Translations under genes and position numbers: made by a program
Notes under the pieces: model-generated
Databases searched by the model: none
What the model was told of the DNA's origin: nothing
The model's input: only the letters and a program-made list of their open reading frames with translations
Part shown: piece after piece, positions 23,999 to 52,417 of the stretch
Layout of the letters: every line of letters begins with the position of its first letter
How positions within the stretch are numbered: the first letter of the stretch is position 1
Source: Aromatoleum diolicum
GTDB lineage: Bacteria; Pseudomonadota; Gammaproteobacteria; Burkholderiales; Rhodocyclaceae
Reading direction: 5' to 3'
Length of the DNA: 64,000 bases
Assembly: GCF_012910955.1 (NCBI RefSeq)
Contig: NZ_WTVQ01000007.1
Location: 62,001 to 126,000 of the forward strand

Positions 23999-24029
23999 AT
24001 TATAGTCGCGTCCATACTGGTGCGTATGG
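23999..24029 (-). promoter_or_regulatory. Promoter with CCATAC-N6-GTATGG operator
   Basis: On the minus strand a perfect -10 box TATAAT (24004-23999) lies 7 bp downstream of the inverted repeat CCATAC-N6-GTATGG (24029-24012). With a 17-bp spacer the -35 position falls inside the repeat and reads ATACGC, far from TTGACA. Further GTATGG-like half-sites lie at 24034-24050. The same repeat is found at 47767-47784 before the DUF485-actP operon. Confidence 0.65.
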
Positions 24030-24069
24030 CAAACGTACGGATGCGTATGGGCGAATCGATTGGCTCCGA

Positions 24070-25077
24070 CTATCGGCGAGGCGATGGTCCGCACGGCGCG
24101 CAGGGGCTGCGGTGGAAAACCCGATCCTCGTCCGCGTCGGCCGGTTCGTCGTCGCTCGTGTCGGCGAGCACCGCGGCGATGTAGTCGGTGGGCAGGCCGT
24201 GGCGGCGGGCGAGTTCGTCGACCGTCTCGCCGCTCGTGCGGATCGCTGCGAACCAGCCGTCGAGGCCGGTCGACAGCGAACGGCCGGCCTTTTCGCCGTC
24301 GCGCGTATCGCCCGATTCGACATTGTACTTGTTCGCATAGCCGCGCGGCGTGACCATCAGGCCGTCGCGCACGAAGGTGTTGGAGTTGCCGATCAGCACC
24401 GTGCTGAGCATGCCGATCTCGCATTCCGTCATTGCGGCGAGCGTGGTGAACTCGATGCGCTGCTTCGGCCGGTAGGCGGACTTCACGATTGCGACCGGCG
24501 TGTCCGGGCGGCGGTGCGCGAGGAACAGGCGCTGCGCCTCGACGATCTGGCGTGCGCGGCGGCCGCTCTTCGGGTTGTACAGCGCGACGACGAAGTCGGC
24601 GGCGGCCGCGGCGTTGAGACGCCGGGCGATCGCCGGCCAGGGGGTGAGCAAGTCCGACAGCGAGATCGCGCAGAAGTCGTGCGTCAGCGGCGCGCCGACG
24701 AGGGCGGCACAGGTGTTGAGCGCGGAGGCGCCGGGGATGATCTCGACTTCGATGTCGGAGTCCGGCGTCCAGCCCGCCTGGAACAGCACTTCGAAGGTCG
24801 GGCCGGCCATGCCGTACACGCCGGCGTCGCCGGACGAGATCAGCGCGACCTTCTTGCCCTGCTTCGCGCGGTCCAGCGCCTCGATGGCGCGGTCGAGTTC
24901 CTCGGTCATTGACTTCTTCACCACCTCCTTGCCTTCGACGAGGTCGGCGACGAGGCGGATGTAGGTGACGTAGCCGATGATGGTGTCGGCCTCGGCGATC
25001 GCGGCGCGTGCGCGCCCGCTCATATGTTCGACACTGCCGGGCCCGAGGCCCACCAGCATGATCTTGCCTGTGGTCAT
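24070..25077 (-). CDS. cobJ: Precorrin-3B / cobalt-factor III C17-methyltransferase
   Basis: A 335-aa SAM-dependent tetrapyrrole methylase (CobJ/CbiH) that methylates C17 with ring contraction. Landmarks are MLVGLGPGSVEHMSGRARAA, ISSGDAGVYGMAGP (SAM site), IPGASALNTCAALVGAPLTH and VALYNPKSGRR. The family is normally about 240-260 aa. This one has roughly 70 extra C-terminal residues, including SGETVDELARRHGLPTDYIA, which has a helix-turn-helix-like look. Last gene of the riboswitch-led operon; a REP-like element lies between cbtA and cobJ. ATG 25077 is chosen by homology. Confidence 0.94.
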   Translation of the reverse strand: MTTGKIMLVGLGPGSVEHMSGRARAAIAEADTIIGYVTYIRLVADLVEGKEVVKKSMTEELDRAIEALDRAKQGKKVALISSGDAGVYGMAGPTFEVLFQAGWTPDSDIEVEIIPGASALNTCAALVGAPLTHDFCAISLSDLLTPWPAIARRLNAAAAADFVVALYNPKSGRRARQIVEAQRLFLAHRRPDTPVAIVKSAYRPKQRIEFTTLAAMTECEIGMLSTVLIGNSNTFVRDGLMVTPRGYANKYNVESGDTRDGEKAGRSLSTGLDGWFAAIRTSGETVDELARRHGLPTDYIAAVLADTSDDEPADADEDRVFHRSPCAPCGPSPRR

Positions 25078-25117
25078 GATGTTGTTGTTCTCTCTGTCGT
25101 TGGAGTAAGAGTCATAT

Positions 25118-25236
25118 CCGTAGGGCGGATGAGCCGGAATTTGGCAACCGCGCCGCCGCATGTGTTATCGATGACTATCCATGCGGCGGAAGGCGCTTCG
25201 CCTTTGGCTACGCCGAAACTTCGTTTTCCGCCCTAT
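25118..25236. repeat. REP-like imperfect palindromic element
   Basis: The outer ends are TAGGGCGGA (25121) and TCCGCCCTA (25227). An inner pair, CGCCGCCGCATG and CATGCGGCGGAAGGCG, flanks a short centre. TAGGGCGGAT-type ends belong to a widespread class of intergenic repeats. The right end supplies the TAG stop codon of cbtA (25233-25235), so the element is inserted flush with that gene. Confidence 0.6.
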
Positions 25237-26012
25237 GCCTGGGCGGGAGCGCCGAGCGTCGCCAGTGCCGGGCGCACCCAGCGGGCGACAGCCCAGCCGG
25301 CGAGGCTGCCGAGGGCAAGCCATTCGGTGGCGCTGGAGATCGCGGTGGCGATGGCAAACTGTCCGGCGAGGGCCTCCATCGTGTGCTCGGCGTCGGCGCT
25401 GTAGCCCGAGTAGGCGCCGACATCGAGGTGCGGCGCGCCGACGACGAAGGGCAGCGCCAGCACGGCGAGGCCCAGCCAGCGCGTGCGCTGCGGGACGAAG
25501 ACGAGCAGCGCGAGGCCCGCGGCAGTGCTGCCTGCGGCGAGCAGCCACCAGCTTTGACGGGCGTCGAGCGGGGCGGCGGCGGCCCCGGGGATCTCCGGCG
25601 GCAGGCCGAGGGCCGGCGCGACAAAGACGCACGCAAAGCCGGCGGCGCCCCACAGCAGGCCCGTGCGGGCCGAGGCGAGCGGCCGGCCGCGCAGGTGCTC
25701 CCAGGTCGTGATGGCGGCGACCAGGATCAAGCCGAAGCCGATCGCAGTCGTCACGTTGGCAATGGCGGTCCACAGGTGCCGTTCGGCCCCGTCCTCGGGC
25801 GCCCACGCGCCCTCATCATGCTCGTGCTGTTCCTCATGGGCAGTTGCGAGCAGATGCTCCTCGTGCTCCGTGGAATGCGGGACGGCAGCCGATTCGAGGA
25901 CTTCGGCAGCGGCAATGATGGGGATGACCTGCCAGTGCTGCACGGCACTCACGAGCAGGCCGGCCAGCGCCCCGACCAGCAGGGCGCACAGGACGATGCG
26001 GCGGAACAGCAT
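25233..26012 (-). CDS. cbtA: CbtA family cobalt transporter subunit
   Basis: A 259-aa membrane protein with about five or six hydrophobic segments, starting RRIVLCALLVGALAGLLVSA. A periplasmic-type loop rich in His and Glu follows the first segment (EHEEHLLATAHEEQHEHDEG), fitting metal capture. CbtA/CbtB are predicted B12-regulated cobalt transporters, known largely from riboswitch comparative genomics. It follows cbtB in a B12 riboswitch operon, which supports cobalt as substrate. The stop codon lies inside the REP-like element. Confidence 0.9.
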   Translation of the reverse strand: MLFRRIVLCALLVGALAGLLVSAVQHWQVIPIIAAAEVLESAAVPHSTEHEEHLLATAHEEQHEHDEGAWAPEDGAERHLWTAIANVTTAIGFGLILVAAITTWEHLRGRPLASARTGLLWGAAGFACVFVAPALGLPPEIPGAAAAPLDARQSWWLLAAGSTAAGLALLVFVPQRTRWLGLAVLALPFVVGAPHLDVGAYSGYSADAEHTMEALAGQFAIATAISSATEWLALGSLAGWAVARWVRPALATLGAPAQA

Positions 26013-26026
26013 GTCGGACTCCGCGC

Positions 26027-26212
26027 TTAGTGGCAGGCGAAGACGTTGGCGTGGCGCGTGTCGTGCGCCGCGTTGTGGGCTGCGGCGATGTGGCTGAAGC
26101 CGACGCCGTAGACGATCACGGCGCCGAGCAGCACGGCGGTGAGGACGGGCAGCGCGATCGCCATCAGGGCGCTCTTCGGGCGGGCGATGTGCAGGGTGGC
26201 TTGCTGTTGCAT
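26027..26212 (-). CDS. cbtB: CbtB family cobalt transporter small subunit
   Basis: A 61-aa protein with one transmembrane helix (ALMAIALPVLTAVLLGAVIV) and the C-terminal histidine-rich tail HNAAHDTRHANVFACH, which is the CbtB hallmark and a likely Co(II) ligand set. AAGGAG lies upstream of the ATG. Immediately followed by cbtA. Confidence 0.92.
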   Translation of the reverse strand: MQQQATLHIARPKSALMAIALPVLTAVLLGAVIVYGVGFSHIAAAHNAAHDTRHANVFACH

Positions 26213-26253
26213 GGTGGTTCTCCTTCTTCGATGGGTGTGACAGCGTTTGAAAA

Positions 26254-26658
26254 TCAGTGGGAAGCCGGCATGCGCGCGACCGACACGGTCGCGTTGCGTC
26301 CGTCGGCGCCGCGCAGCTTGTGTTTTTCGACGATCAGCGCCGTGAGATCGGCGCCCGCGGCGAGCAGCGCGGCGGCTTCCGACACAGACGGGGTGCCGGT
26401 GTAGCGGCGTACGGTCTCCGACGGGTTCGGTACCGCGACTGCAGCGAGCGCAGCCGCCGGGTGGAAGTCGATCGTCCAGCCGAGGTGCGCGGCGAGTTCG
26501 AGCAGGCCGGCCTCGTCGGCCTTGAGATCGATGCTCGCCACGGCGCGCACGTCGGCAAGGCGGGCGCCGGCCCGGGCCAGCGCCTCGTCGATGGCCCGGG
26601 CGATGGTCTCCGCGGGCGTGCCGCGGTCGCAGCCGAGGCCTAGTGCAACCTGGATCAC
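26254..26658 (-). CDS. cobE: CobE / CbiG C-terminal domain protein
   Basis: A 134-aa protein matching the C-terminal domain of CbiG (CobE family): VALGLGCDRGTPAETIARAI, DVRAVASIDLKADEAGLLEL and PSVSEAAALLAAGADLTALI. The start is GTG at 26658 with an excellent AGGAGG upstream; it overlaps the stop of the cbiG gene by four bases (GTGA). The normal CbiG polypeptide is thus encoded as two coupled genes. Role in cobalt-precorrin-5A handling is inferred. Confidence 0.88.
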   Translation of the reverse strand: MIQVALGLGCDRGTPAETIARAIDEALARAGARLADVRAVASIDLKADEAGLLELAAHLGWTIDFHPAAALAAVAVPNPSETVRRYTGTPSVSEAAALLAAGADLTALIVEKHKLRGADGRNATVSVARMPASH

Positions 26659-27428
26659 GCCACCTCCTGTGGCGGCCGGTAGATCACGCGACGCCCTGCA
26701 AGGCGCTCGCCCCAGCCTTCGGGGAGCTCGCGGTGGCTGATCCATAGCACGGCGCCGAACGTCTGCGGGTCGATGTCTTCGAGGCGCTCGAAGCGTTTCA
26801 GGTTCGCGGGCAGCGGACCGCTGCGGCCATTCGCATGGCGCGCCCACCAGTCATGGCTGCCGGCTTCCTGCACGAGCGCGACCGGCTCGTCGTTCACGAC
26901 CGCGGCGCTGGCACGCACGATCTCGTCGTGGCTCGCGTCGAAGGTCCAGCCCAACTCGCGGCCGAGCAGGTCCACGGCAAGCGTGGCGCGCGCGTCGGAG
27001 GCGGTGGTCAGCACCGGTTGCGCGCCGAGCGCCGCCGCCAGCACGCCGGCCAGCGCATTGGCGCCACCGAGGTGGCCCGACAGCATCGGGATCGCGTAGC
27101 GGCCGCCTTCGTCCAGCACGACGATGCCGGGGTCCTGTTCCTTGTCCTTCAGGTGCGGCGCGATCAGGCGCACGACGGCGCCGAGCGAGACGATCGCGAC
27201 GATGCCGTCGAAGCCCGCGAACAGTGCCGGCACCTGGTCGCCGGTCTTGCCCGTGTAGCAGGTCGCCGCGCCGGGTGCGGCGGCCTCGGCTTCGGCGCGG
27301 AATTTCTCGGGGGCGAAGAGCCGTGCGCCGGGGAGTGTGGCAACGACGCGTCCGGCGAGTGCGAGGCCGTGACGCGTGATCGAGACGACGGCGACGCGTT
27401 GATTGGGGAAAGGGAGTTGCACGCTCAT
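26655..27428 (-). CDS. cbiG: Cobalt-precorrin-5A hydrolase, N-terminal and central CbiG domains
   Basis: A 257-aa protein covering the CbiG N-terminal and mid domains. Motifs are VAVVSITRHGLALAGRVV, FDGIVAIVSLGAVVRLIAPH, VVLDEGGRYAIPMLSGHLGG and ANALAGVLAAALGAQPVLTT. CbiG opens the delta-lactone ring with loss of acetaldehyde in the anaerobic pathway. The C-terminal domain is the separate overlapping gene cobE. It overlaps the stop of cobI by four bases. Confidence 0.93.
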   Translation of the reverse strand: MSVQLPFPNQRVAVVSITRHGLALAGRVVATLPGARLFAPEKFRAEAEAAAPGAATCYTGKTGDQVPALFAGFDGIVAIVSLGAVVRLIAPHLKDKEQDPGIVVLDEGGRYAIPMLSGHLGGANALAGVLAAALGAQPVLTTASDARATLAVDLLGRELGWTFDASHDEIVRASAAVVNDEPVALVQEAGSHDWWARHANGRSGPLPANLKRFERLEDIDPQTFGAVLWISHRELPEGWGERLAGRRVIYRPPQEVA

Positions 27429-28258
27429 GCCGGGGCCTCCTCGGTGGTGACGATCGTGCCGATCTCTACGGCGGCGGCACGCTTGCGGCAGCCGCGGCGC
27501 AGTTCGCCGCGCGCGCGCTTGGGGTTCTGCACCAGCAGCAGCGACAGGTAATTGACCTTCTCGCCGCGCAGGCTCGCGACGTCCTTCACGACGCGCTCCT
27601 CGGGCGAGCCGACTTTCTCGACGAAGCAGCTCGTCGCGACGAGGTCGCGCGCTTCGAGAAGATCGAGCACCTCGTCGAGCAGCGGCTTCACCTTCATCAG
27701 CACCAGCGTGTCGAACTCGTCGAGCAGGTGGTCGATCACCGAGACGCCGTACGCGGCGGGGATCACGGCAAGCGTCTCGTCCTCTTCGGCGAGCGCGATG
27801 TCGGCGCAGGCCGCGGCGGCGGCGAAGGAGCTGACACCGGGAATCGTCTCCACTTCGACTTCCGGTGCAAGCTCGCGCACGGTGCGGGCGAGGTGGCGGA
27901 AGGTCGAATAGGTCGACGCGTCGCCCTCGACCAGGAAGGCGACGTCGCGCCCGTCGGCAAGGAGTTCGGCCGTGCGGGCCGCGGCGCGCGCCCAGGCTTT
28001 CGCGAGCGCCGCGGCGTCGCGCGTCATCGGGAACACCAGCTCGACTGCGTCGGCGGGCACGGACAGGCCGCCGCGGCGCACGATGTCGAGCGCGTAGGAG
28101 CCTTCCTCGGCCTTCTTCACCGGATAGGTCCAGCGCGCCGCCGACAGCAGCGCGGCCCAGCCGCGGCGCGTGATCAGTTCGGGATCGCCAGGGCCGAGCG
28201 AGACGCCGATCAGGCGGCCGTAGCGGGGGGAGGGGAGGTCGTTTGTCATTGTCGTCAT
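27425..28258 (-). CDS. cobI: Precorrin-2 / cobalt-factor II C20-methyltransferase
   Basis: A 277-aa SAM-dependent methylase (CobI/CbiL). GRLIGVSLGPGDPELITRRG opens it, VAFLVEGDASTYSTFRHL contains the SAM-binding loop, and VETIPGVSSFAAAAACADIA, LKVKPL-like LMKVKPLLDEVLDL and NYLSLLLV follow. It methylates C20 after cobalt insertion by CbiX. Starts at 28258 and 28249 are both possible, and neither has a clear ribosome-binding site. A REP-like palindrome separates it from cobL. Confidence 0.94.
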   Translation of the reverse strand: MTTMTNDLPSPRYGRLIGVSLGPGDPELITRRGWAALLSAARWTYPVKKAEEGSYALDIVRRGGLSVPADAVELVFPMTRDAAALAKAWARAAARTAELLADGRDVAFLVEGDASTYSTFRHLARTVRELAPEVEVETIPGVSSFAAAAACADIALAEEDETLAVIPAAYGVSVIDHLLDEFDTLVLMKVKPLLDEVLDLLEARDLVATSCFVEKVGSPEERVVKDVASLRGEKVNYLSLLLVQNPKRARGELRRGCRKRAAAVEIGTIVTTEEAPA

Positions 28259-28298
28259 GCTGTTATGAGTGTCGGTATGTTGGGTTGGCACCGACCTA

Positions 28299-28353
28299 GT
28301 GGGAGCGGCTTCAGCCGCGAATCGGCGCGCATTCGCGGCAGAGCCGCTCCCAC
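28299..28353. repeat. REP-like palindrome
   Basis: GTGGGAGCGGCT at the left end and AGCCGCTCCCAC at the right end, with inner complementary GCCGCGAATCG / ATTCGCGGC, form a long stem-loop. It resembles the GTGGGAGCGGCTTCAGCCGCGA repeats common in pseudomonads. It starts 5 bp after the cobL stop codon, so a stem-loop forms at that gene boundary in the operon mRNA. Confidence 0.75.
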
Positions 28354-28357
28354 GTGC

Positions 28358-29677
28358 TTATCCACGGTTCTCCTGCAAAGTGTCCGTTGCCACGGAGCCT
28401 CCCTTGCGCGCGGTGATGATCCACACCGGGTTCTGCGCGGCGAGGCGGTGCATGTCGAGGATGGGCTGGCTGCGCGCGGCCGACAGCATCGTCACCTCCC
28501 ACTCCGCGCCGGCGGCGGCGAGCGCGGTGGTCGCGGTGGCGAGGTTTTCGAGAGTGACGAAGTTCATCACGAGGCGCCCCGCGGGTCGCAGCCGCGCGAG
28601 GCACAATTCGATCAGGTGGGCGAGTTCGCCGCCCGAGCCGCCGATGAACACCGCGTCCGGATCGGGCCAGGTGTCGAGGCCGTCCGGCGCCTTGCCTTCG
28701 ACCAGCGTGTAGTTCGTCGCCTGCAGGCGCTGCGCGTTCTCGCGTGCATTCGCGGCGTCACCGGCGTTCTTCTCGATCGCCCACACGTGACCGAGGCGCG
28801 CGATGCGCGAGGCTTCGAGTCCCACCGAACCGGAGCCCGCGCCGATGTCCCAGACGCGGCTGTCGGCGCGCAACCCGAGTTTCGCGAGCGACACCGCGCG
28901 CGCTTCGAGCTTGGTAATCAGGCCCTTTTCGGGCTGGCGCTGCACGAAAGCGCCGTCCTCGAAGCCGAACACCGCGCACGGCGCGGGAGCTGCGACACGG
29001 TCGATGACGACGATGTTGGGGTCGGGGAAGCGGCGGGCGGAAGCGTCCGCGAGCGACAGGTCCTGGAAGATGGCTTCGTCCGGCAGGCACAGCCGCGCCG
29101 CGACCGAGATGCGCAGGTCTTCGCCGTAGCCCGCGGCAATTAGCGCGCGTGCGACGCGGTCGGGACCGTTCGCGGGGCTCGTGAAGGTCGCGACACGCGC
29201 ATGCTCCGTGACCGCGCGCACGATCGCATAGAGGCCGTGTTCGGGTGTCGCCCCGGTCTGCCACTCGCCGGCATCCGCGCCATGGCAGGAACGGACCGCG
29301 GCGTCCTGCCAGGGCTTCTTCAGCCGTGCGCAGGCGAGTGCGATCGTCGACGGGGCGGGCAGCACCTCAACCTGTGCCGCGCCAATCTTGTCGATCAGGA
29401 AGCGCGCGATGCCGTGGCATAACGGGTCGCCGGTCGCGAGCACGGTGACCGGCAGGCGGTCGGCGAGCGCGGCGCGCACCCACTCGGGCGTCTTGCCGAG
29501 CGAACCGTCCATGTCGCGCAACTCGACTTCGGCGCCGAGATGCGGCGCCACCAGCTCCAGCGTGCGGCGCGCGCCGATCACGACGCGGCTCGCGGCGAGC
29601 CGTTCGCGGGCGGTGGCAGAGAGCCCCTCCCAGCCGTCGTCGAGGATGCCCAGGATCAGGCAGGGACGTTCAGACAT
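28358..29677 (-). CDS. cobL: Precorrin-6Y C5,15-methyltransferase (decarboxylating), CbiE-CbiT fusion
   Basis: A 439-aa bifunctional enzyme. Residues 1 to about 210 are the CbiE-type methylase (VTVLATGDPLCHGIARFLID, VEVLPAPSTIALACARLKKP). From about residue 235 comes the CbiT class I methyltransferase with the SAM loop VWDIGAGSGSVGLEASRIAR and DAVFIGGSGGELAHLIELCL. It methylates C5 and C15 and decarboxylates the C12 acetate. GGAGG precedes ATG 29677. The start lies inside the end of cbiD (22-bp overlap). Confidence 0.95.
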   Translation of the reverse strand: MSERPCLILGILDDGWEGLSATARERLAASRVVIGARRTLELVAPHLGAEVELRDMDGSLGKTPEWVRAALADRLPVTVLATGDPLCHGIARFLIDKIGAAQVEVLPAPSTIALACARLKKPWQDAAVRSCHGADAGEWQTGATPEHGLYAIVRAVTEHARVATFTSPANGPDRVARALIAAGYGEDLRISVAARLCLPDEAIFQDLSLADASARRFPDPNIVVIDRVAAPAPCAVFGFEDGAFVQRQPEKGLITKLEARAVSLAKLGLRADSRVWDIGAGSGSVGLEASRIARLGHVWAIEKNAGDAANARENAQRLQATNYTLVEGKAPDGLDTWPDPDAVFIGGSGGELAHLIELCLARLRPAGRLVMNFVTLENLATATTALAAAGAEWEVTMLSAARSQPILDMHRLAAQNPVWIITARKGGSVATDTLQENRG

Positions 29678-30816
29678 TCGGATTCCTCCACGGTGACAAT
29701 GGGCACGCCCTCGAAATTGCACGCGAGCACGGTGAGGCGGTGCGGGCCGGGATAGCGGCTGCGCAGGCTGCGGATCGCGCGTACCGCCAGCGCGCGGTGG
29801 AAGGCCACGGTGAGCCCCAACTCACCGAGGCGTTCGGCGGCGAAGCGCGCGGTCTCGGCGGCGCGAATCTCTTCGACGAGGTCCGGCGGTGCGCCGACCT
29901 CGATGGCCGCGTCGGCGATCAGCTCGCGGTCGATTTCCTCGCGCCACGCATGCGTCACCGACAGGCCCTGCGCGATCTTCGTGAGCTTGCCGACCATCGC
30001 GCCGACGATCACGTGCTGCATGCGCTGATTCACCGCGGTCGTGAACGCCGCCTTGACGAAGTCGCCCATCTGCACGAAGCAAGCCTCGTCGAGTTCGGGG
30101 AGCTCGCGCATCGCGCATTTCTCGGTGCGCCCGCCGGTCGTGAACACGACGGTGGTCTGGCCCTGATTCGCCGCGACATCGACCGCCTGGATCACGCTGG
30201 CGCGGAAGGCTGCAGTCGAATACGGCCGCACGATGCCGGTCGTGCCGAGGATCGAAATGCCGCCGAGGATGCCCAGGCGCGCGTTCAGCGTCTTCTTCGC
30301 CATCTCCTCCCCGCCCGGCACCGAGATCGTCACCTCCAGGCTGTCGCCGGCGGCGAGGATGGCGGCGCCGGCGCGCGCGACGTTCTCGGCGATGTTCCTG
30401 CGCGGCACCGGGTTGATCGCCGGGCCCCCGACTTCGAGCCCCAGACCCGGCTTCGTCACGACGCCGACGCCGGATCCGCCCTTCAGGATCACCACGCCGC
30501 CGCCGCGGATGCGCCGCACGTCGGCGGTCAGATGCGCGCCGTTGGTGGCGTCCGGGTCGTCGCCGGCATCCTTGATGCTGACCGCGTGGGCGCACTCGCC
30601 TTCAACGCGCCCGTCGATGATGCGGAAGACCACGTGCCGGGTGTTCGGCAGCACGCACTCGATCTCGCCGGGTACCTCACCGTGCACCAGGCCAAGCGTC
30701 GCCGCGGTCGCCGCGGCGGCCGAGTTCGCGCCGGTCGAGAAGCCCGTGCGGTTGCCGCGCTCGCGCTTCGCGTCGCCCTTGCGCACCTTCTCCGGCAAGG
30801 CGTGGCCCGCTGCCAT
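29656..30816 (-). CDS. cbiD: Cobalt-precorrin-5B C1-methyltransferase
   Basis: A 386-aa CbiD protein: RTGFSTGANSAAAATAATLG near the N-terminus, then GGGVVILKGGSGVGVVTKPG, INPVPRRNI and GTTGIVRPYSTAAFRASVIQ. CbiD is specific to the oxygen-independent pathway, so its presence is a main argument for cobalt-early B12 synthesis. The ATG at 30816 lies 8 bp after the cobH stop; only a weak ribosome-binding site is visible, so coupling is likely. Confidence 0.95.
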   Translation of the reverse strand: MAAGHALPEKVRKGDAKRERGNRTGFSTGANSAAAATAATLGLVHGEVPGEIECVLPNTRHVVFRIIDGRVEGECAHAVSIKDAGDDPDATNGAHLTADVRRIRGGGVVILKGGSGVGVVTKPGLGLEVGGPAINPVPRRNIAENVARAGAAILAAGDSLEVTISVPGGEEMAKKTLNARLGILGGISILGTTGIVRPYSTAAFRASVIQAVDVAANQGQTTVVFTTGGRTEKCAMRELPELDEACFVQMGDFVKAAFTTAVNQRMQHVIVGAMVGKLTKIAQGLSVTHAWREEIDRELIADAAIEVGAPPDLVEEIRAAETARFAAERLGELGLTVAFHRALAVRAIRSLRSRYPGPHRLTVLACNFEGVPIVTVEESECLNVPA

Positions 30817-30824
30817 GGCGATCT

Positions 30825-31502: not shown

Positions 31503-31505
31503 GGT

Positions 31506-33262: not shown

Positions 33263-33266
33263 CGGT

Positions 33267-33344
33267 TCAGGCGCCCGGCGCGCATTGCGCCGACCGATGA
33301 TTGACGACAGGCCGCCGGCCCGTCCCGGTTTGATCGAATTGCAT
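33267..33344 (-). CDS. Putative 25-codon leader ORF before cobM
   Basis: The minus strand carries GGGGAG, 6 bp, then an ATG and 25 sense codons (MQFDQTGTGRRPVVNHRSAQ, then CAPGA) ending in TGA four bases before the cobM ATG. cobM itself lacks a ribosome-binding site. The peptide has no recognisable family, so the ORF more likely acts by coupling translation of cobM to initiation here. Within reach of the riboswitch expression platform, GGGGAG could be the element that is sequestered. Confidence 0.45.
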   Translation of the reverse strand: MQFDQTGTGRRPVVNHRSAQCAPGA

Positions 33345-33546
33345 GACGACTCCCCGCGAGTTCGTGACAAACGCGCACCGGGAGACGGAGACGACGGACC
33401 GAGGCCGCGAAAATCGGGCACAGTCCGGTCGATTCTTGAGGCTGGTCGAAGAGTGGCTGCGCGCGGGCGGTCGAAGCCCGTCGCAGACGCGATCGAAAAC
33501 CAGTCGGCAAGCCCTCACCCCGGGGCACACACCTACCAATTCGATC

Positions 33547-34658: not shown

Positions 34659-34681
34659 TTCAGCCCGCCGCCGCGACACGT

Positions 34682-36220
<1,539 letters not shown>

Positions 36221-37697: not shown

Positions 37698-37707
37698 TGG
37701 AGCTGCG

Positions 37708-38640: not shown

Positions 38641-38678
38641 GGAGCTTTGTCAGTTTAAAACGACCGGCAGGGCCTGCC

Positions 38679-39617: not shown

Positions 39618-39628
39618 GGGGTCCGGGC

Positions 39629-40600: not shown

Positions 40601-41528
40601 GGCCGAGCAGTCCTGAGAGGGGAACGGATAGCGCCGCGATGGCGATGGTCCCCAGCCACAGCAGCATGCCGTGCTGCATCAGGCGCACCGCAGCACGGAT
40701 GCTGGCGGCGTCCGGTGCCTTGCCGCAGCCGAGCGGCGGGCGTTGTTCCTCGCGGCCGTGGTAGATCGCCGCGCCGCCCAGTTGCACACCGAGCGCGCCG
40801 GCGCCGGCGGCCATCACCGGGCCGGCGTTGGGGCTGTCCCACGCCGGAGCCTGGCTGCGCCAGCAGCGCAGGGCGTCGCGACTGCGGCCGATGAGGGCGT
40901 AGGTCAGCGCGGTGAGGCGTGCGGGAGCCCAGTTGAGCACGTCGTCGAGGCGTGCCGCGGCCCAGCCGAAGCGGATGAAGCGTTCCGTGCGATAGCCCCA
41001 CATCGCGTCCAGCGTGTTGGCGAGGCGGAACATCAGCGCGCCCGCGCCACCGGCGACGCAGAACCAGAACAGCGCGCCGAATACCGCGTCGTTGCCGTTT
41101 TCGAGCACGGATTCGGTGCCGGCCTTGGCGACTCCTGCCGCATCGAGGGCGCGCGTGTCGCGGCTGACGATCCAGCCGACGCGCACGCGTGCGGTGTCGA
41201 GGTCGCCGGCGGCAAGCGGCGCGGCAATGGCCTCGGCGTGCTGCGCAAGGCTGCGCGCGCCGAGCGCGAGATACAGCAGGCCGATATCGATGACCCAGTG
41301 CGCCAGCGGATGGCTTTCGCGTAGCACCAGCGCCAGTCCGAGCCACGGCCCGATCGCCAGCGCCCACGCGAGCAGGCCGCCGACGCGATTCGGCAGCAGC
41401 GGGCGCAGGTGCGCTTCGAGCCAGCCCGCCCAGCGGCCGAAGCCGATCAGCGGGTGCCAGCGCCGCGGTTCGCCGAGAAGGCGGTCGAGCGCGATGCCGG
41501 CGGCGAGTTTGACGAACAGGGAAATCAT
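40593..41528 (-). CDS. cbiB: Adenosylcobinamide-phosphate synthase (CbiB/CobD)
   Basis: A 311-aa integral membrane protein with about five helices. It joins adenosylcobyric acid to aminopropanol phosphate. [20 protein letters not shown] near the N-terminus, [40 protein letters not shown] and [14 protein letters not shown] are family motifs. Divergent from cobQ across 56 bp. First gene of the minus-strand run ending at btuF. Confidence 0.94.
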
Positions 41529-41584
41529 CGGCGCGGTGCTTTCGGCGATAATCCGCCGCTTTGAAAGAGCCGGGATTTTACGCC

Positions 41585-43060
41585 ATGCCACAAGCAATCG
41601 CCCTGATGGTGCAGGGAACGACCTCGGACGCCGGGAAAAGCACGCTGGTCGCCGGGCTGGCGCGGCTGCTGGCGCGGCGCGGCGTGCGCGTGGCGCCGTT
41701 CAAGCCGCAGAACATGGCGCTCAATTCGGCGGTGACCGTCGACGGCGGCGAGATCGGCCGCGCCCAGGCGCTGCAGGCGCTGGCGGCGGGGCTTGCGCCG
41801 CATACTGACTTCAACCCGGTTCTGCTGAAACCCTCGACCGACATCGGTGCGCAGGTGATCATCCACGGCAAGGTTGCGGCGAACCTGTCGGCGCGTGACT
41901 ACCACGCCTACAAGCCGACCGCGATGGCTGCGGTGATGGCGTCGTGGGACCGGCTCACCACGGCCTATGAGTGCGTGCTGGTCGAAGGCGCGGGCAGCCC
42001 GGCCGAGATCAACCTGCGCGACCGCGATATCGCCAACATGGGGTTTGCCGAAGCGGCCGACGTGCCGGTGATCCTGGTGGCCGACATCGACCGTGGTGGC
42101 GTGTTCGCGCATCTGGTGGGCACGCTGGAGCTGCTGTCGCCATCCGAGCAGGCGCGCGTCAAAGGTTTCGTCATCAACCGCTTCCGTGGCGACATCGGCC
42201 TGCTGCAATCCGGACTGGACTGGCTGGAAGCGCGCACCGGGCGGCCGGTGCTGGGGGTGTTGCCCTATCTGCACGGACTTTTTCTCGACGCCGAGGATGC
42301 GCTGGCCGACGCGCGCGCCGAGAAGGGCGAGACGCGCCTGCGCGTGGTGGCGCCGGTGTATCCGCGCATCTCGAACCACACCGACCTCGACGCGCTGCGC
42401 CTGCATCCGCAGGTGGACTTCCGCTGGGTTGGGCCGGGTCAGGCGATGCCGCCCGCGGACCTGATCGTGTTGCCCGGCTCAAAGAGCGTGCAAGCCGATC
42501 TGGCATGGCTGCGCGCGCAGGGCTGGGACGCGGCGATCCGGCGTCATCTGCGCTACGGCGGCAAAGTGGTCGGCATCTGCGGCGGTTTCCAGATGCTCGG
42601 CGCGACGCTGTCCGACCCGCTCGGGCTCGAAGGGGGCGCAACGACAGTCGCGGGCCTCGGCCTGCTCGACATGGATACCGTGCTCGAAGCGGAAAAGTGC
42701 CTGGAAAATGCCCGCGGCACGCTTTTGCTGCCGGGCGGCGCGGAGGTGTCCGGCTACGAGATCCACATGGGCGTGAGCCGCGGTCCGGCGCTCGATTGCC
42801 CGGCGTTGCGTTTCGCCGACGGGCGTGCCGACGGCGCGTTGTCGGTCGATGGCCAGATTCTCGGCACGTATCTGCACGGCCTCTTCGACGCGCCCGCAGC
42901 CTTGCCTTCCCTGCTTGCCTGGGCGGGCGCCGGCGACCTCGCGACGGTCGATCTCGCTGCGCGGCGCGAGGCCGATCTCGACCGGCTCGCCGATGTGATC
43001 GAGCGTCACCTCGATCTCTCAACGCTGTTCCCGGCCGCCTGGGGCGCGGCGGGCGGCTGA
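41585..43060 (+). CDS. cobQ: Adenosylcobyric acid synthase (glutamine-hydrolysing)
   Basis: A 491-aa enzyme (CobQ/CbiP) amidating four side chains of adenosylcobyrinic acid a,c-diamide. The N-terminal P-loop is [20 protein letters not shown], with [12 protein letters not shown] and [15 protein letters not shown]. The C-terminal class I glutaminase-like domain has the nucleophile in [11 protein letters not shown] and the His in GTYLHGLFD. No riboswitch precedes it; the divergent promoter with cbiB is only 56 bp. Confidence 0.95.
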
Positions 43061-43116
43061 ACGCAGGTCCAATCTTTACTATTTCTTAACCCGCCCGGCG
43101 CCAGAATCCGGGCGCT

Positions 43117-44631
43117 ATGAATATTCTCGCAAATGCCCTCGGCGTCGTCCGGCTGTCGCGGGTCAATGGCGCACTGCGCGTCTATTTTCCGGTGCTGAAC
43201 GCGCTCGGCCTGATCATCATGATCTTCGGCCTGCTGATGGCGTTCCCCCTCGTGGTGTCGTTCATCCTCGACGACGGCGCGACCGAAGCCTACGACATGG
43301 CGATCCTCGCGACCTTCTTGCCCGGCGCGCTGTTGTGGGCGCTCACCCGCGGCGCGCGGCGCGACCTGCGGGTGCCCGACGGCTTCCTGATGGTGGCGGC
43401 GACCTGGACGGTCGTGCCCATTTTCGGCGGTCTGCCGCTGATGTTCTATCTGCCGCAACTGTCGTTCACCGATGCCTATTTCGAAGCCGCGTCAGGACTC
43501 ACCACGACCGGCGGGACGGTATTGACCGGGCTCGACGGCATGGCGATCTCGATCCACCTGTGGCGCACCTTCATGCACTGGGTCGGCGGCATGGGCGTCA
43601 TCGTGCTGATGGTCGCGATCCTGCCCCTGCTCGGTATCGGCGGGCGCCAGATCTTCAAGGCCGAGGCGCCGGGTCCGATGAAGGAGTCCAGCCTCACACC
43701 GCGCATCGCGGAAACCGCGAAGGGTTTATGGACGGTGTACCTGCTTCTGACCATCGCGTGCGGGCTGGGTCTTTACCTTGCCGGGTTACCGCCGTGGGAG
43801 GCATTGATCCATGCCTTCTCGATCACCGGCCTGGGCGGATTTTCGAGCAAGGATGCGAGCCTCGGCTTCTTCAACAGCGTGCCGGTGGAACTGGTCACGA
43901 TGCTGTTCGCGTTGCTCGCGGGTTTCAACTACGCGACGCACTACCTCGCGTTCGCCCGCCGCAGCCTGGTGCCCTATGCGCAGGACCCGGAAATCCCGTG
44001 GTTCCTTGCCGTGCTGGCGGTCAGCATCGTCTGCCTGACTGTCTACCTGCTTCCGTTCAATGCGCACGAAGACGTCGCCCAGACGCTGCGCTACGTCGCC
44101 TTCCACGCGATTTCGCTCGCCACGTCACTGGGGCTGGCAACCTACGACTACACCGCGTGGCCGATGTTCGCGCAACTGTGGATCCTGTTCCTGTGCAGCT
44201 TCGCGGCCTGCTCGGGTTCGACTGGCGGCGGCATCAAGATGATGCGCGCGATCATTCTTTACAAGCAGACCTACCGCGAGGTGATCCGCTCACTGCACCC
44301 GAACGCGGTGGCGCCGGTACGCCTGGGGGGGGTACCCGTGTCGGACAATGTCCTGCATGCGGTGCTTGCCTTCAGCTTCATGTACATGGTGACGAACGTG
44401 GTGCTGACGCTCGTGCTTTCGGCGAGCGGGCTCGACATCATCAGCGCGTTTTCGGCGGTCGTGGCCTGCCTCAACAACACCGGGCCGGGGCTCGGTGCGG
44501 TCGGTCCGGCTGCGAACTACCAGGGACTCAACGACTTCCAGATCTGGGTGCTGTCATTCACGATGATCCTCGGTCGCCTCGAGATCTTCACGCTGCTGGT
44601 GGTGATGACCCCGGTGTTCTGGCGGCGCTGA
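43117..44631 (+). CDS. trkH: Trk/Ktr-type potassium uptake protein TrkH
   Basis: A 504-aa membrane protein of about ten helices with four pore loops: AASGLTTTGGTVLTGLDGMA, SITGLGGFSSKDASLGFF, CSFAACSGSTGGGIKMMR and VVACLNNTGPGLGAVGPAA. The filter glycines are in place. It imports K+ and needs TrkA-type RCK proteins, which are not in the window. It is convergent with kdpE with only 12 bp between stops, next to a Kdp-type two-component system. Confidence 0.94.
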   Translation: MNILANALGVVRLSRVNGALRVYFPVLNALGLIIMIFGLLMAFPLVVSFILDDGATEAYDMAILATFLPGALLWALTRGARRDLRVPDGFLMVAATWTVVPIFGGLPLMFYLPQLSFTDAYFEAASGLTTTGGTVLTGLDGMAISIHLWRTFMHWVGGMGVIVLMVAILPLLGIGGRQIFKAEAPGPMKESSLTPRIAETAKGLWTVYLLLTIACGLGLYLAGLPPWEALIHAFSITGLGGFSSKDASLGFFNSVPVELVTMLFALLAGFNYATHYLAFARRSLVPYAQDPEIPWFLAVLAVSIVCLTVYLLPFNAHEDVAQTLRYVAFHAISLATSLGLATYDYTAWPMFAQLWILFLCSFAACSGSTGGGIKMMRAIILYKQTYREVIRSLHPNAVAPVRLGGVPVSDNVLHAVLAFSFMYMVTNVVLTLVLSASGLDIISAFSAVVACLNNTGPGLGAVGPAANYQGLNDFQIWVLSFTMILGRLEIFTLLVVMTPVFWRR

Positions 44632-44643
44632 ACGCAGGGCGCG

Positions 44644-45345
44644 CTACAGCACCAGCCGGTAGCCGATTCCCGATTCGGTGAGGATGTGCGCCGGGAAACC
44701 GGGATTGGGCTCCAGCTTGCGTCGCAGGCCCGCCATGTAAACACGCAGGTAATGCGTGTGTTCGACATGGTTCGGCCCCCAAATCTGTGACAGCAGCTGC
44801 CGGTGCGTGAGCACGCGCCCGGCGTTGGCGATCAGGTGGCCGAGCAATTTGTATTCGATCGGCGTCAGATGCACCGGCTCGCCCTTGCGCGTGACGGCGC
44901 GCTGCGCCAGATCCACCTCGATCTCGCCGAACTGCACCAGCGCCGGACCGTCCATTTGCGGGCGGGTTGCACGCCGCAGCAGCGCGCGCACCCGCGCCAG
45001 CAGCTCTGCCACGCCGAAGGGCTTGGTCAGGTAATCGTCGGCACCGGCATCCAGCGCAGCCACCTTGTCAGCCTCGTCGCTGCGGGCCGACAGCACCAGC
45101 ACCGGCACCGACGACCAGCCGCGCAATTGCGCGATCATCTCCAGACCGTCGCGGTCGGGCAAGCCGAGATCCACCAGCACCAAGTCCGGCTTGCGCGAGC
45201 CGGCCTCGATCAACCCGCGTTCCGCGGTGCTCGCCTCGCTGACCTGCCATTGCTCCGATTCGAGCGCGCGGCGCAGAAAATGGCGGATGTGCGGCTCGTC
45301 CTCGACAATGACGGCAACCGGTGCGGGCGCTCGTGCGTCCTTCAT
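44644..45345 (-). CDS. kdpE: KdpE-like OmpR-family response regulator
   Basis: A 233-aa regulator. The receiver domain carries acidic residues VEDEPHIR, the phosphoacceptor Asp in LVLVDLGLPDRDGLEM and Lys in DDYLTKPFGVAELLARVRAL. The C-terminal OmpR/PhoB winged helix ends HTHYLRVYMAGLRRKLEPNP, typical of KdpE. The ATG overlaps the kinase stop (ATGA). In E. coli KdpE activates kdpFABC; no such operon is here, while trkH lies next door. Confidence 0.92.
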   Translation of the reverse strand: MKDARAPAPVAVIVEDEPHIRHFLRRALESEQWQVSEASTAERGLIEAGSRKPDLVLVDLGLPDRDGLEMIAQLRGWSSVPVLVLSARSDEADKVAALDAGADDYLTKPFGVAELLARVRALLRRATRPQMDGPALVQFGEIEVDLAQRAVTRKGEPVHLTPIEYKLLGHLIANAGRVLTHRQLLSQIWGPNHVEHTHYLRVYMAGLRRKLEPNPGFPAHILTESGIGYRLVL

Positions 45346-46805
45346 GCGTGACGCTCCGGCAGCGCGGGCGGTTCGCCGCGCGGCAATTCGATGACGAAGC
45401 GGGCGCCGCCGCCGGGGCGATTCTCCGCCCGCACGCTGCCCCCGTGCGCTTCGGCCACCGCCTGCACGATCGACAGCCCCAAACCGACGCCCGGGATGCC
45501 GGATTCGCCCTGTCCGCGGCTGAACTTGTCGAACAGCTGGCGTTCGCGTCCCGGCGGCAGCCCCGGGCCGTCGTCGGCGACAACGATGTCGATATGGGTC
45601 TCGCGCTCGCGCGCGGCGATCTCGATCGTGCTGCCGGGCGGCGTGTACTTGGCCGCGTTTTCCAGCAGATTGCACAGGGCGCGCTCCATCAACACCGCGT
45701 CCACCTCGATCAGCGGCAACTCGGCGGGCAGATCGAAGCTCAGGCGGTGATTTGCGAGCTGCCGCGCGCGTGCCTGCAAGGCGGCGCCGACCACTTCTTC
45801 GAGCGGTTGCCATTCGCGCCGCAGACGGATCTGACCGGATTGCAGGCGCGCCATGTCGAGCAGGTTATGCACCTGCGCGCTGCTGCGCAGGGCATCGTCG
45901 CGGATCGCCTGCACCAGTTCGGTTTGCGCCGCCGAAAGCGGCGGCGTGCTCATTTGCAGGGTGTCGGCCAGTCCGACCAAGGCCGTGAGCGGCGTGCGCA
46001 AGTCATGCGACAGCGCCCCGAGCAGCGAATTGCGCAGACGCTCCGACGCCATGTCCAGCTGCGCCGCCTGCGCGACGGCGACGTAATGCACGCGTTCGAG
46101 GGCAATCGCGATCAGCGTCGCAAAGGTTTCAAGCAGCTGGCGCTGTTCGGCCGTGAAGCCCGGACTGCCGTCGGGGCAAACGATCGCCATCGTCCCGTGC
46201 GCGCGCGTCGGCGCCTGCAGGGGGAGCAGCAGGTGCGCGTCGTCCTCGGTGTGGCGGGTGCTCGTCGCGGGCGCTGCGTCACCCGTGTCCGCCTGCAGTA
46301 GCGTGGCCTGGGCGCCAAAACCGTCATGCACGAAGCGTTCGGCGATCTCCGCGATCTGTTCCGTGGTCAGTGCGCCCGACAACTCGCGCCCCATCTCGTA
46401 GAGCGCGCGTGTTCGCTTTTCGCGCTCCTCGGCGGCATCGCGCTGCGCCCGCAGGCCGGTCGCGAGCTCGGCCGTGATCAGTGCCACCGCAAGCATCACG
46501 CCGAAAGTCACGAGGTACTGCAGATCGCTGACGGCGAGCGTCAGGTGCGGGGCGACGAAGAAAAAATCGAACAGCACCACCGACAGGAAGGCCGCCAGGA
46601 CCGCCGGGCCGCGTCCCAGCCGCACCGCCGCGAACAGCACCGCGAGCGGAAACAGCATCACGATATTGACCGGGTCGACGTGGCGCAGCAGCGGTGCGCT
46701 CGCCGCCGCAACGGTGCACACGACCGCCGCCGCAATGGCGTACGCGCGCCAGCCGGCAGGGCGGTCGGTGAGCGGGGCGAAGAGTTTGCGGGCCGACGTG
46801 GGCAT
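45342..46805 (-). CDS. kdpD: KdpD-like sensor histidine kinase lacking the N-terminal KdpD/Usp sensor region
   Basis: A 487-aa kinase, against about 895 in E. coli KdpD. The N-terminal cytoplasmic KdpD domain with its Walker motifs and the Usp domain are missing. The protein starts just before the four transmembrane helices (residues about 20-115, with LFDFFFVAPHLTLAVSD typical of KdpD). A GAF domain, the HisKA box LGALSHDLRTPLTALVGLAD, ENAAKYTPPGS and the ATP site DDGPGLPP follow. The start at 46805 is supported by length of the reading frame; nothing KdpD-like precedes it upstream. Confidence 0.9.
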   Translation of the reverse strand: MPTSARKLFAPLTDRPAGWRAYAIAAAVVCTVAAASAPLLRHVDPVNIVMLFPLAVLFAAVRLGRGPAVLAAFLSVVLFDFFFVAPHLTLAVSDLQYLVTFGVMLAVALITAELATGLRAQRDAAEEREKRTRALYEMGRELSGALTTEQIAEIAERFVHDGFGAQATLLQADTGDAAPATSTRHTEDDAHLLLPLQAPTRAHGTMAIVCPDGSPGFTAEQRQLLETFATLIAIALERVHYVAVAQAAQLDMASERLRNSLLGALSHDLRTPLTALVGLADTLQMSTPPLSAAQTELVQAIRDDALRSSAQVHNLLDMARLQSGQIRLRREWQPLEEVVGAALQARARQLANHRLSFDLPAELPLIEVDAVLMERALCNLLENAAKYTPPGSTIEIAARERETHIDIVVADDGPGLPPGRERQLFDKFSRGQGESGIPGVGLGLSIVQAVAEAHGGSVRAENRPGGGARFVIELPRGEPPALPERHA

Positions 46806-46909
46806 CGGTGAACTTTAACCTGCCCGCGCCCTTGCGACCTGAGTCTCAAGTGTGTGGCATTAAGCCAGCCAGCGCGGAGTTGTTCCCTGCGGCTCTCCAA
46901 CTCGCCGCG

Positions 46910-47692
46910 CTATCGTCCGCTGAAGCGGGGTGCGCGCTTCGCGAAGAAGGCGTCCATGCCTTCGCGATAGTCGTCGGTGTCGAGGAACGCGAAGGCCGCC
47001 CGCTTTTCGTCCAGGCTCAGTGGCCGATCCTGCGTCAGCCGATGCACCCACTGTTTGTGCCAGCGCGACACCAGCGGTGCCCCTGCGGCGATGCGTGCGG
47101 CGCTGGACTGCGCCTCGTCGAGCACCTGTTCGTCGTCGGTGACGCGGGTCAGCAGCCCTTTTTGCAGCGCCTCGCGGGCGCCGAGGATGCGTCCCTCGAG
47201 CAGGATTTCGAGCAGTACCGCCGGGCCGACGAGTTCCAGCAGTCCCGCCATCTCTCCCGGATACATCGAAAAACCGAGGCGGTTGATCGGTGCGCCAAAG
47301 CGTGCCGATTCGCCGGCGATGCGCAGGTCGCAGCAACCGGCAATTTCCAGTCCGCCACCGATGCACGCCCCCTGGATCGCAGCGACGGTGGGAATCGGGC
47401 AGGTGCGGATCGCGTCCAGCGCGGCGGCCACCAGGGTGTCGTGATAGTGCAGCGCGTCGTCGACGGTCGCGCGCACGGTCAGAAATTCCTCGATGTCTCC
47501 GCCGGCCGCAAAGGCCTTGTCACCTGCACCGCGCAGGACCACGCAACGCAGCTCCGGGGTCGCGGCGATGCCGTCAAACGCCTCGCGCAGCGCCACCCAC
47601 ATCGCCGAATCGATGGCGTTGAGCTTGTCCGCGTTCGACAGGGTCAGGGTGGCGATGGCGCCATCCGAAGAAAAGAGTATTTCGCCGCTCAT
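46910..47692 (-). CDS. Enoyl-CoA hydratase/isomerase family protein
   Basis: A 260-aa crotonase. The oxyanion-hole segments are AFAAGGDIEEFL and PTVAAIQGACIGGGLEIAGC, and the catalytic region is RFGAPINRLGFSMYPGEMAG. Of the two crotonase acidic positions, Glu is retained in PGEMAG; the earlier one is not clear, so hydratase versus isomerase or hydrolase activity is open. It diverges from the DUF485-actP operon across 215 bp containing several inverted repeats. Confidence 0.87.
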   Translation of the reverse strand: MSGEILFSSDGAIATLTLSNADKLNAIDSAMWVALREAFDGIAATPELRCVVLRGAGDKAFAAGGDIEEFLTVRATVDDALHYHDTLVAAALDAIRTCPIPTVAAIQGACIGGGLEIAGCCDLRIAGESARFGAPINRLGFSMYPGEMAGLLELVGPAVLLEILLEGRILGAREALQKGLLTRVTDDEQVLDEAQSSAARIAAGAPLVSRWHKQWVHRLTQDRPLSLDEKRAAFAFLDTDDYREGMDAFFAKRAPRFSGR

Positions 47693-47716
47693 GGCTGGGC
47701 CCCAAAGCTAAAAACT

Positions 47717-47758
47717 GAGTGCAACACTCGGAAATTATTGAATTGTTGCGCTGCGCAA
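47717..47758. promoter_or_regulatory. Two short inverted repeats upstream of the enoyl-CoA hydratase gene
   Basis: GAGTG-CAA-CACTC (47717-47729) and TTGCGC-T-GCGCAA (47746-47758) lie 25-66 bp upstream of the hydratase start, in the divergent region. Each could be an operator. No regulator can be assigned from sequence. Confidence 0.35.
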
Positions 47759-47766
47759 AAAAACTT

Positions 47767-47795
47767 CCATACTGTGTGGTATGGAGTCATATAGA
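47767..47795 (+). promoter_or_regulatory. Promoter of DUF485-actP with CCATAC-N6-GTATGG operator
   Basis: The inverted repeat CCATAC-TGTGTG-GTATGG (47767-47784) is followed after 5 bp by the -10-like TATAGA (47790-47795). The same repeat in the same position relative to a -10 box is found at 23999-24029 before the CoA-transferase gene. The leader from here to the start codon is about 110 nt. Confidence 0.6.
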
Positions 47796-52390: not shown

Positions 52391-52417
52391 GTTTGTCCCC
52401 TTGTCATTGCCGTATAG

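What the first reader, a model, noticed from the sequence alone, without database searches (positions are those of the whole stretch)
23999..47795. Same 18-bp inverted repeat in two acetate-related promoters
CCATAC-N6-GTATGG occurs at 24012-24029, before the CoA-transferase gene (22655-23950), and at 47767-47784, before DUF485-actP. In both it lies 5-7 bp upstream of a -10 box (TATAAT, TATAGA), with no consensus -35. The N6 centres differ (GCACCA against TGTGTG in the reading direction), so this is not a duplicated DNA block. The simplest reading is one regulator that activates or represses acetate uptake and CoA transfer together. It is not a site I can assign to a known regulator.
Basis: partly seen in the sequence, partly recalled or inferred. 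Interest (0 to 1): 0.72.

Follow-up and report, generated by a model that had tools for sequence, protein, structure and literature searches.

The report
Shared operator of fatty-acid-breakdown repressor
The repeated 18-letter palindrome is very likely the docking site of a TetR-type repressor, encoded elsewhere in the same genome, that switches a set of fatty-acid breakdown genes together with an acetate transporter, in Aromatoleum-like bacteria and many relatives.

Summary
In detail: CCATAC-N6-GTATGG lies at 24012-24029 and 47767-47784, with 0 expected in shuffles. The 5.15-Mb genome holds four exact copies. A third precedes a 3-hydroxybutyryl-CoA dehydrogenase (HBD) gene. The fourth is one of three tandem copies between divergent etfB and a TetR-family gene; one covers the tetR start codon. 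Weaker copies precede ETF-quinone oxidoreductase/thioesterase/acetoacetate-CoA ligase and an SDR dehydrogenase. All 30 best tetR loci of the family and all 39 close orthologues in named records carry the palindrome upstream. In 150 family genomes an exact site occurs in 79 of 91 with this TetR and 5 of 59 without (p=5e-23). Both window sites recur at orthologous promoters with variable N6, though not in all.

So one regulator does join these promoters, but the regulon is beta-oxidation/short-chain acyl-CoA metabolism, not acetate as such. Operators lie upstream of -10, downstream of -10 or on a start codon, which favours repression. Binding, repression and ligand are inferred. It is a new member of a known kind.

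The parts
24012..24029 (-). Operator CCATACGCACCAGTATGG of the CoA-transferase promoter (reading direction of the gene)
   Evidence: exact match; palindrome with 2 mismatches or fewer upstream in 17 of 30 orthologous loci, this one included
24033..24050 (-). Second, weaker operator copy CCATACGCATCCGTACGT, 21 bp upstream of the first
   Evidence: 2 mismatches; also in the nearest same-genus locus L096; found by the relaxed pattern
23999..24004 (-). -10 box TATAAT of the CoA-transferase promoter, 7 bp after the operator
   Evidence: sequence; TATAAT 6-8 bp after the palindrome in 12 of 17 loci
22655..23950 (-). Acetyl-CoA hydrolase/transferase family gene (431 aa); exact acyl specificity not settled
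   Evidence: PF13336 and PF02550; TIGR03948 304.2 bits, below its cut-off of 674.8
22111..22608 (-). MaoC-like enoyl-CoA hydratase gene, 46 bp downstream, probably the same transcript
   Evidence: PF01575; spacing
47767..47784 (+). Operator CCATACTGTGTGGTATGG in the crotonase / DUF485-actP intergenic region
   Evidence: exact match; present in 15 of 20 actP loci with divergent crotonase, this one included
47795..47806 (.). Palindrome ATGATATATCAT, likely actP core promoter (TATATC 47799-47804 as -10) or a second operator
   Evidence: of 15 promoters with the operator 10 have it exactly, 5 with one letter changed, all 15 have TATATCAT; ATGATATATCAT absent in 13 of 13 other promoters checked, TATATCAT in 12 of them
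47908..48228 (+). DUF485 membrane protein gene
   Evidence: PF04341
48210..49904 (+). actP, cation/acetate symporter (ORF limits as listed; true start may be near 48228)
   Evidence: NF009135 909.7 bits, cut-off 850; NF006903 884.3, cut-off 750; TIGR02711 727.5, below its cut-off 1099.25
46910..47692 (-). Enoyl-CoA hydratase (crotonase) gene, divergent from DUF485-actP, likely also controlled by the 47767 operator
   Evidence: PF00378; three crotonase loci with no actP found beside them keep the palindrome

Best explanation
CCATAC-N6-GTATGG is the operator of a TetR-family repressor encoded elsewhere in the genome (contig C113, 297-905 +, divergent from etfB). A dimer would sit on the palindrome over or next to the core promoter and block RNA polymerase at etfB/tetR, HBD, the CoA-transferase(-MaoC) operon, the crotonase and DUF485-actP pair, and probably ETF-QO/thioesterase/acetoacetate-CoA ligase and an SDR dehydrogenase. 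A pathway intermediate, most likely an acyl-CoA, would release it, so that beta-oxidation, electron transfer from it, CoA transfer and acetate/monocarboxylate uptake rise together. Shown in silico: the site set, its link to the tetR gene, its recurrence at orthologous promoters, and its positions. Inferred: physical binding, repression, and the ligand.
For: Three tandem palindromes in the etfB-tetR gap, one covering the tetR start codon. All 30 best family loci (own included) carry palindromes with at most 2 mismatches, as do all 39 close orthologues in named records. Exact site in 79 of 91 TetR-positive and 5 of 59 TetR-negative family genomes (p=5e-23); 155 sites against 4 control in the former, 5 against 3 in the latter. 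One genome per genus: 34 of 42 against 2 of 26 (p=1.6e-9). CoA-transferase promoters 17 of 30, crotonase 19 of 30, actP 15 of 20 with divergent crotonase. Arms nearly invariant, N6 variable (sites chosen by match). Other targets are beta-oxidation genes: HBD, ETF-QO/thioesterase, FadH-like, FadB-like, acyl-CoA synthetase. Operator upstream of -10 (CoA-transferase), 5 nt downstream of TATAGT at HBD, with a TA-N-A-N-T box 1-10 nt before the operator in 23 of 23 HBD loci against 0 of 23 in a control window, and on a start codon (tetR), which fits steric repression.
Against: No binding or expression data. 12 TetR-positive family genomes have no exact site. 13 of 30 CoA-transferase loci lack the palindrome, 12 of them in TetR-positive genomes. 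5 of 20 actP-crotonase promoters lack it, all in TetR-positive genomes. The weaker sites in this genome (SDR with 1 mismatch, ETF-QO with 2) are within reach of chance by number alone (controls 3 and 60). The ligand is a guess: the predicted fold resembles TetR proteins of many functions. The TetR scores far below the cut-offs of all 12 NCBIfam models listed, fatty-acid FadR included.
Confidence: 0.83

Rival explanations
1. The site belongs to an acetate-specific regulator such as the CrbS/CrbR (MxtR/ErdR) two-component system, whose response regulator activates acs and actP.
For: CrbR activates actP in Pseudomonas through an imperfect inverted repeat next to the promoter (PMC5715377, passages).
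Against: The listed ACTU sequences (such as TACTACCATCGTCGAAT) differ in arms and spacing from CCATAC-N6-GTATGG (compared by eye). The site tracks a TetR gene and lies downstream of -10 at HBD, where an activator is unlikely. Whether crbSR is present in this genome was not searched.
Confidence: 0.04
2. The TetR protein binds here but activates, or does both, so the poor -35 boxes are compensated by the bound protein.
For: The CoA-transferase and actP promoters show no consensus -35 by eye, and the operator occupies that region.
Against: At HBD the operator starts 5 nt after the -10, and at tetR it covers the start codon.
Confidence: 0.09
3. At 47767 the true target is only the divergent crotonase gene; actP is a bystander, so the link to acetate uptake is accidental.
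For: Three of 14 crotonase loci with no actP found beside them keep the palindrome; 0 of 9 actP loci without any crotonase nearby have it (upstream sequence is short in two of these).
Against: All 16 crotonase loci with DUF485/actP beside them have the palindrome, against 3 of 14 without. Distance to DUF485 is steadier (135-144 bp in 10 loci, 195-212 in 5) than to crotonase (48-138 in 19 loci). In all 15 promoters the conserved TATATCAT element lies 14-15 bp from the operator on the actP side. L184 has a 1-mismatch site before DUF485-actP without divergent crotonase.
Confidence: 0.15
4. Chance palindromes in promoter DNA.
For: Matches to a relaxed pattern are common (87 against 60 control with up to 2 mismatches).
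Against: Exact copies: 4 against 0 in this genome, 155 against 4 in TetR-positive genomes, and recurrence at orthologous promoters.
Confidence: 0.01

Closest known systems
FadP (TetR-family predicted regulator of fatty acid degradation in Ralstonia, Burkholderia and Comamonadaceae)
   Same: TetR family, Betaproteobacteria, fatty acid degradation regulon (PMC5343134, passages)
   Different: A TetR of the present type is found at E<=1e-15 in only 12 of 300 genomes of the order, six of them its own family, which is hard to square with orthology to FadP; no FadP sequence or motif was at hand, so this is not settled
PsrA (TetR-family regulator of fatty acid degradation, chiefly in Gammaproteobacteria)
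   Same: TetR family and pathway (PMC5343134, passages)
   Different: The PsrA operator as I recall it (arms of the GTTTGAAC kind) differs from CCATAC-N6-GTATGG; from memory, not tested by a tool
FadR of Bacillus (TetR-family acyl-CoA-responsive repressor)
   Same: Overall fold; B. halodurans and B. subtilis FadR are ranks 1, 3 and 4 of the Foldseek list (TM 0.64-0.68, 16-17% identity)
   Different: NCBIfam FadR model scores 24.5 bits against a cut-off of 200; other hosts; a shared TetR fold shows no function
CrbR/ErdR (LuxR-type response regulator of acetate use)
   Same: Controls actP through an inverted repeat (PMC5715377, passages)
   Different: Different motif and protein family; it is an activator
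EdcR (TetR repressor of estradiol degradation in Caenibius)
   Same: TetR repressor of a catabolic regulon with a palindrome on the core promoter (PMC8700777, passages)
   Different: Operator TnnCnnTACnAnTnGTAnnGnnA differs; pathway differs

Membership tests
TetR-family regulators (general) | N-terminal TetR_N helix-turn-helix domain | tested here: met
   PF00440, 42.9 bits against gathering score 24
TetR-family regulators (general) | All-helical fold with C-terminal ligand/dimer domain | tested here: met
   AlphaFold2 model of the A. toluvorans orthologue (90% identical), pLDDT 86.4, ten helices; VIA-align Z up to 18.1 (rmsd 2.6, 181 aligned) to solved TetR-type structures
TetR-family regulators (general) | Binds a palindromic operator at its own promoter (autoregulation) | tested here: inconclusive
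   Three palindromes upstream of and on the tetR start; sequence evidence only, no binding test
TetR-family regulators of fatty acid degradation (functional class) | Sites upstream of several beta-oxidation operons | tested here: met
   etfB, HBD, crotonase, and weaker sites at ETF-QO/acetoacetate-CoA ligase and SDR in this genome; FadH-like and FadB-like in relatives
TetR-family regulators of fatty acid degradation (functional class) | Release by an acyl-CoA or fatty acid ligand | not testable with these tools
   needs a ligand-binding assay
FadP | Orthology to FadP of Ralstonia/Burkholderia/Comamonadaceae | tested here: inconclusive
   12 of 300 order genomes match at E<=1e-15; no FadP sequence or motif held (Kazakov 2009 not in the library)
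Bacillus-type FadR (NF053878) | NCBIfam model above its cut-off | tested here: not met
   24.5 bits against 200
ScbR family (NF041196) | NCBIfam model above its cut-off | tested here: not met
   43.5 bits against 150
CrbR/ErdR acetate regulon | ACTU motif upstream of actP | tested here: not met
   The site compared by eye with the ACTU sequences listed in PMC5715377: different arms and spacing. The rest of the actP promoter was not scanned for an ACTU box, and crbSR was not searched in the genome

The most novel reading that the evidence does not exclude
A deeply rooted TetR clade has kept the same operator, CCATAC-N6-GTATGG, across Beta- and Alphaproteobacteria while its regulon was rewired around acyl-CoA metabolism, and in Rhodocyclaceae it became the general beta-oxidation repressor that also brought acetate uptake (actP) and CoA transfer under its control. 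Support: distant homologues (27-43% identity) have the palindrome with at most 1 mismatch within 300 bp upstream in 15 of 41 loci (about 0.03 expected by a uniform-base estimate of mine, no shuffled control run; L286 and L287 are from one MAG), and in two Rhodospirillaceae loci it lies both between a thiolase-like gene and tetR and before an acyl-CoA synthetase-like gene (gene names by eye).
Probability: 0.35. Interest if true: 0.58.

Novelty: new member of a known kind. Interest (0 to 1): 0.45.

Why it matters
Aromatoleum, Azoarcus and Thauera are models for anaerobic degradation of aromatic and fatty compounds, but no regulator of their general beta-oxidation genes stood out in the open-access search listings made here. 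This gives a candidate protein, a precise operator and a target list that one EMSA or one knockout with RNA-seq can test. It also suggests that acetate uptake is wired to fatty-acid breakdown in these bacteria rather than to an acetate sensor.

Tried and rejected
CrbR/ACTU box: read the motif passages, different sequence. The 1-mismatch hit C91:188393 lies inside an asparagine-synthase-like gene (by eye) and is taken as chance. Other core matches (C60, C61, C64, C65, C84, C102, C124:141524) lie inside ORFs or beside genes with no evident link, by eye (C124:141524 is inside an acyl-CoA-carboxylase-like ORF); C146:103421 was fetched but not analysed. Up-to-2-mismatch matches are mostly noise (87 against 60; only part of the places are listed by the tool). 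The relaxed pattern (9 forward and 7 reverse, controls 4 and 5) added only the second CoA-transferase copy; C58:250445 was looked at without a convincing target. Fold comparison does not single out an acyl-CoA-binding relative: Foldseek has FadR at ranks 1, 3 and 4, while FadR is not among the 50 rows of VIA-align and FasR is at rank 26, so no ligand claim rests on it. A profile search of solved structures gave 112 sequences, with the 60 shown matching mainly the DNA-binding domain of assorted TetR proteins. PA3973 and EdcR motif passages were read and differ. A text search for CCATAC/GTATGG with TetR listed no evidently relevant title among the 20 of 62 shown. Kazakov 2009, the paper behind FadP, is not held, and RegPrecise could not be consulted, so this regulon may already be predicted there. 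In genus g21 exact sites lie between bioB-like and comF-like genes; left unexplained. Other exact sites in relatives (L197, L200, L202, L221, L315, L331, L332) have no obvious beta-oxidation gene. Two sites before CBS-domain-like genes (L321, L324) remain unexplained. The first regex for -10 boxes at HBD found 17 of 23 because it excluded TAAAGT; the wider TA-N-A-N-T found 23 of 23, control 0 of 23. The etfB fragment used was translated in a wrong frame, so its hits are not used; etfB was identified from L236. On recounting, the exact ATGATATATCAT count was corrected to 10 of 15.
Full report
Observation. The pattern CCATAC-N6-GTATGG occurs exactly twice in the window, at 24012-24029 and 47767-47784; 100 dinucleotide shuffles give none. 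In the whole genome (G000, 5.15 Mb, 146 contigs) it occurs at four places, control 0; with up to one mismatch at eight places, control 3.

The other copies name the regulator. One exact copy lies upstream of a 3-hydroxybutyryl-CoA dehydrogenase gene (L001; NF004474, 484.6 bits, cut-off 408). The last lies on contig C113, where three copies (one exact, two with one mismatch) stand in a row at 232-249, 253-270 and 283-300, between divergent etfB and a TetR-family gene at 297-905. The third copy contains the tetR ATG. EtfB is cut by the contig end here; it is complete in the A. toluvorans orthologous locus L236, where it has the ETF domain PF01012. A one-mismatch copy on C135 lies just upstream of an SDR dehydrogenase. 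A two-mismatch copy on C56 (ACATACGGTACCGTATGT) lies between a thioesterase gene followed by acetoacetate-CoA ligase (NF002937, 998.6 bits, cut-off 639) and ETF-quinone oxidoreductase (PF05187). Of the eight places with at most one mismatch, seven are next to gene starts of tetR/etfB (three), HBD, CoA-transferase, crotonase/actP and SDR; the eighth is inside an unrelated gene.

Link to the TetR gene across genomes. The TetR was found (E<=1e-30) in 91 of 150 genomes of the family. Thirty best loci, own included, were examined: all 30 have one to four palindromes with at most two mismatches upstream, at near-constant distances from the helix-turn-helix in 26 of them. Of 80 loci fetched from named records, the 39 close orthologues (71-93% identity; Aromatoleum, Azoarcus, Thauera, Pseudothauera, Parazoarcus and MAGs) all have them. 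Exact sites occur in 79 of 91 TetR-positive and 5 of 59 TetR-negative genomes (Fisher p=5e-23); 155 sites against 4 control sites in the first group, 5 against 3 in the second. With one genome per genus: 34 of 42 against 2 of 26, p=1.6e-9. Relatedness is not fully removed by this.

The two window promoters. CoA-transferase orthologues occur in 43 of 150 genomes; 30 loci were examined and 17 have a palindrome (at most 2 mismatches) within 300 bp upstream, 14 of the 17 starting 69-79 bp before the aligned start, and 12 of the 17 with TATAAT 6-8 bp after it. Of the 13 without, 12 are in TetR-positive genomes. Crotonase orthologues occur in 95 of 150 genomes; 30 loci were examined and 19 have the palindrome. 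All 16 with DUF485/ActP beside them have it, against 3 of 14 without (L135 has only 173 bp of upstream sequence). ActP homologues occur in 47 of 150 genomes; 30 loci were examined: 15 of 20 with divergent crotonase have the site, 0 of 9 with no crotonase nearby (two of these have little upstream sequence), and one further locus has a one-mismatch copy. The five crotonase-actP loci without it are in TetR-positive genomes. In the 15 actP sites the arms differ at one of 180 cells while every N6 position varies; in the 17 CoA-transferase sites the arms differ at six of 204 cells and N6 begins with G in 17 and GC in 14 (both sets were chosen by match, so arm conservation is partly built in).

A second element. 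Just after the actP operator lies the palindrome ATGATATATCAT (47795-47806; once in the window with up to one mismatch, mean 0.02 in shuffles). Thirteen other actP promoters were checked: 12 lack the operator and TATATCAT alike; the 13th, L184, has a one-mismatch operator and TATATCAT. TATATC is thus the likelier -10; the palindrome may also bind something.

Mechanism. Relative to the core promoter the operator lies upstream of -10 over the -35 region (CoA-transferase, actP); 5 nt downstream of TATAGT at HBD, with a TA-N-A-N-T box 1-10 nt before the operator in 23 of 23 HBD loci (chosen for an exact operator), against 0 of 23 in a control window further upstream; and over the start codon at tetR. 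A protein acting from all these positions is most simply a steric repressor, as TetR proteins usually are (general knowledge). The targets (ETF, ETF-QO, HBD, crotonase, CoA-transferase, acetoacetate-CoA ligase; in genus g8 also FadH-like and FadB-like, and in G103 an acyl-CoA synthetase) point to an acyl-CoA signal. That step is inference; the structural comparison does not decide it.

Comparison with what is known. Published TetR regulators of fatty acid degradation in Proteobacteria are PsrA and, in Ralstonia, Burkholderia and Comamonadaceae, FadP (PMC5343134, passages). The TetR described here is found in 12 of 300 genomes of its order at E<=1e-15, six of them its own family, so it is probably not FadP, but no FadP sequence was available. 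CrbR, the known acetate regulator, has a different motif (PMC5715377, passages). In A. aromaticum EbN1 the two TetR passages shown concern aromatic pathways (PMC9765128), and in the strain CIB paper TetR genes of Gram-positive bad-ali clusters (PMC9795900, passages).

Verdict. It is an operator of a TetR-type beta-oxidation regulon in Rhodocyclaceae: new in its details as far as could be checked, ordinary in kind, and directly testable. The host is probably Aromatoleum, judging from the TetR orthologues of 90-93% identity.

Noticed in passing
window 47795-47806: Perfect palindrome ATGATATATCAT that goes with the operator in actP promoters of relatives (10 of 15 exact, 5 with one letter changed); G057 keeps both elements (L137) although no actP is found beside the crotonase.
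   Followed up: partly
L194, L196, L198 (genus g21): Exact CCATAC-N6-GTATGG sites between a bioB-like gene and a comF-like gene (by eye), with similar flanks; a biotin link or a different regulator.
   Followed up: no
L286 and L290 (Rhodospirillaceae MAGs), near 2855 and 3696: Distant TetR homologues (31-32% identity) have the same palindrome between a thiolase-like gene and tetR and again (1 mismatch) before an acyl-CoA synthetase-like gene (gene names by eye).
   Followed up: partly
L319, L323, L325 (genus g8): Exact site whose centre is 56-69 bp before a FadH-like flavoprotein gene, divergent from a glucose-1-phosphate adenylyltransferase-like gene (the latter by eye).
   Followed up: partly
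L321, L324 (genus g8): Exact site upstream of a small CBS-domain protein gene (PF00571 for L321; L324 by eye); its role in the regulon is unclear.
   Followed up: no
window 43117-46805: TrkH-like transporter gene and KdpDE-like sensor kinase and response regulator next to the crotonase gene (recognised by eye from ORF translations).
   Followed up: no
window 51443-58177: Tad/Flp-pilus-like cluster (TadB/C-, CpaF-, CpaE- and TadE-like ORFs, recognised by eye).
   Followed up: no
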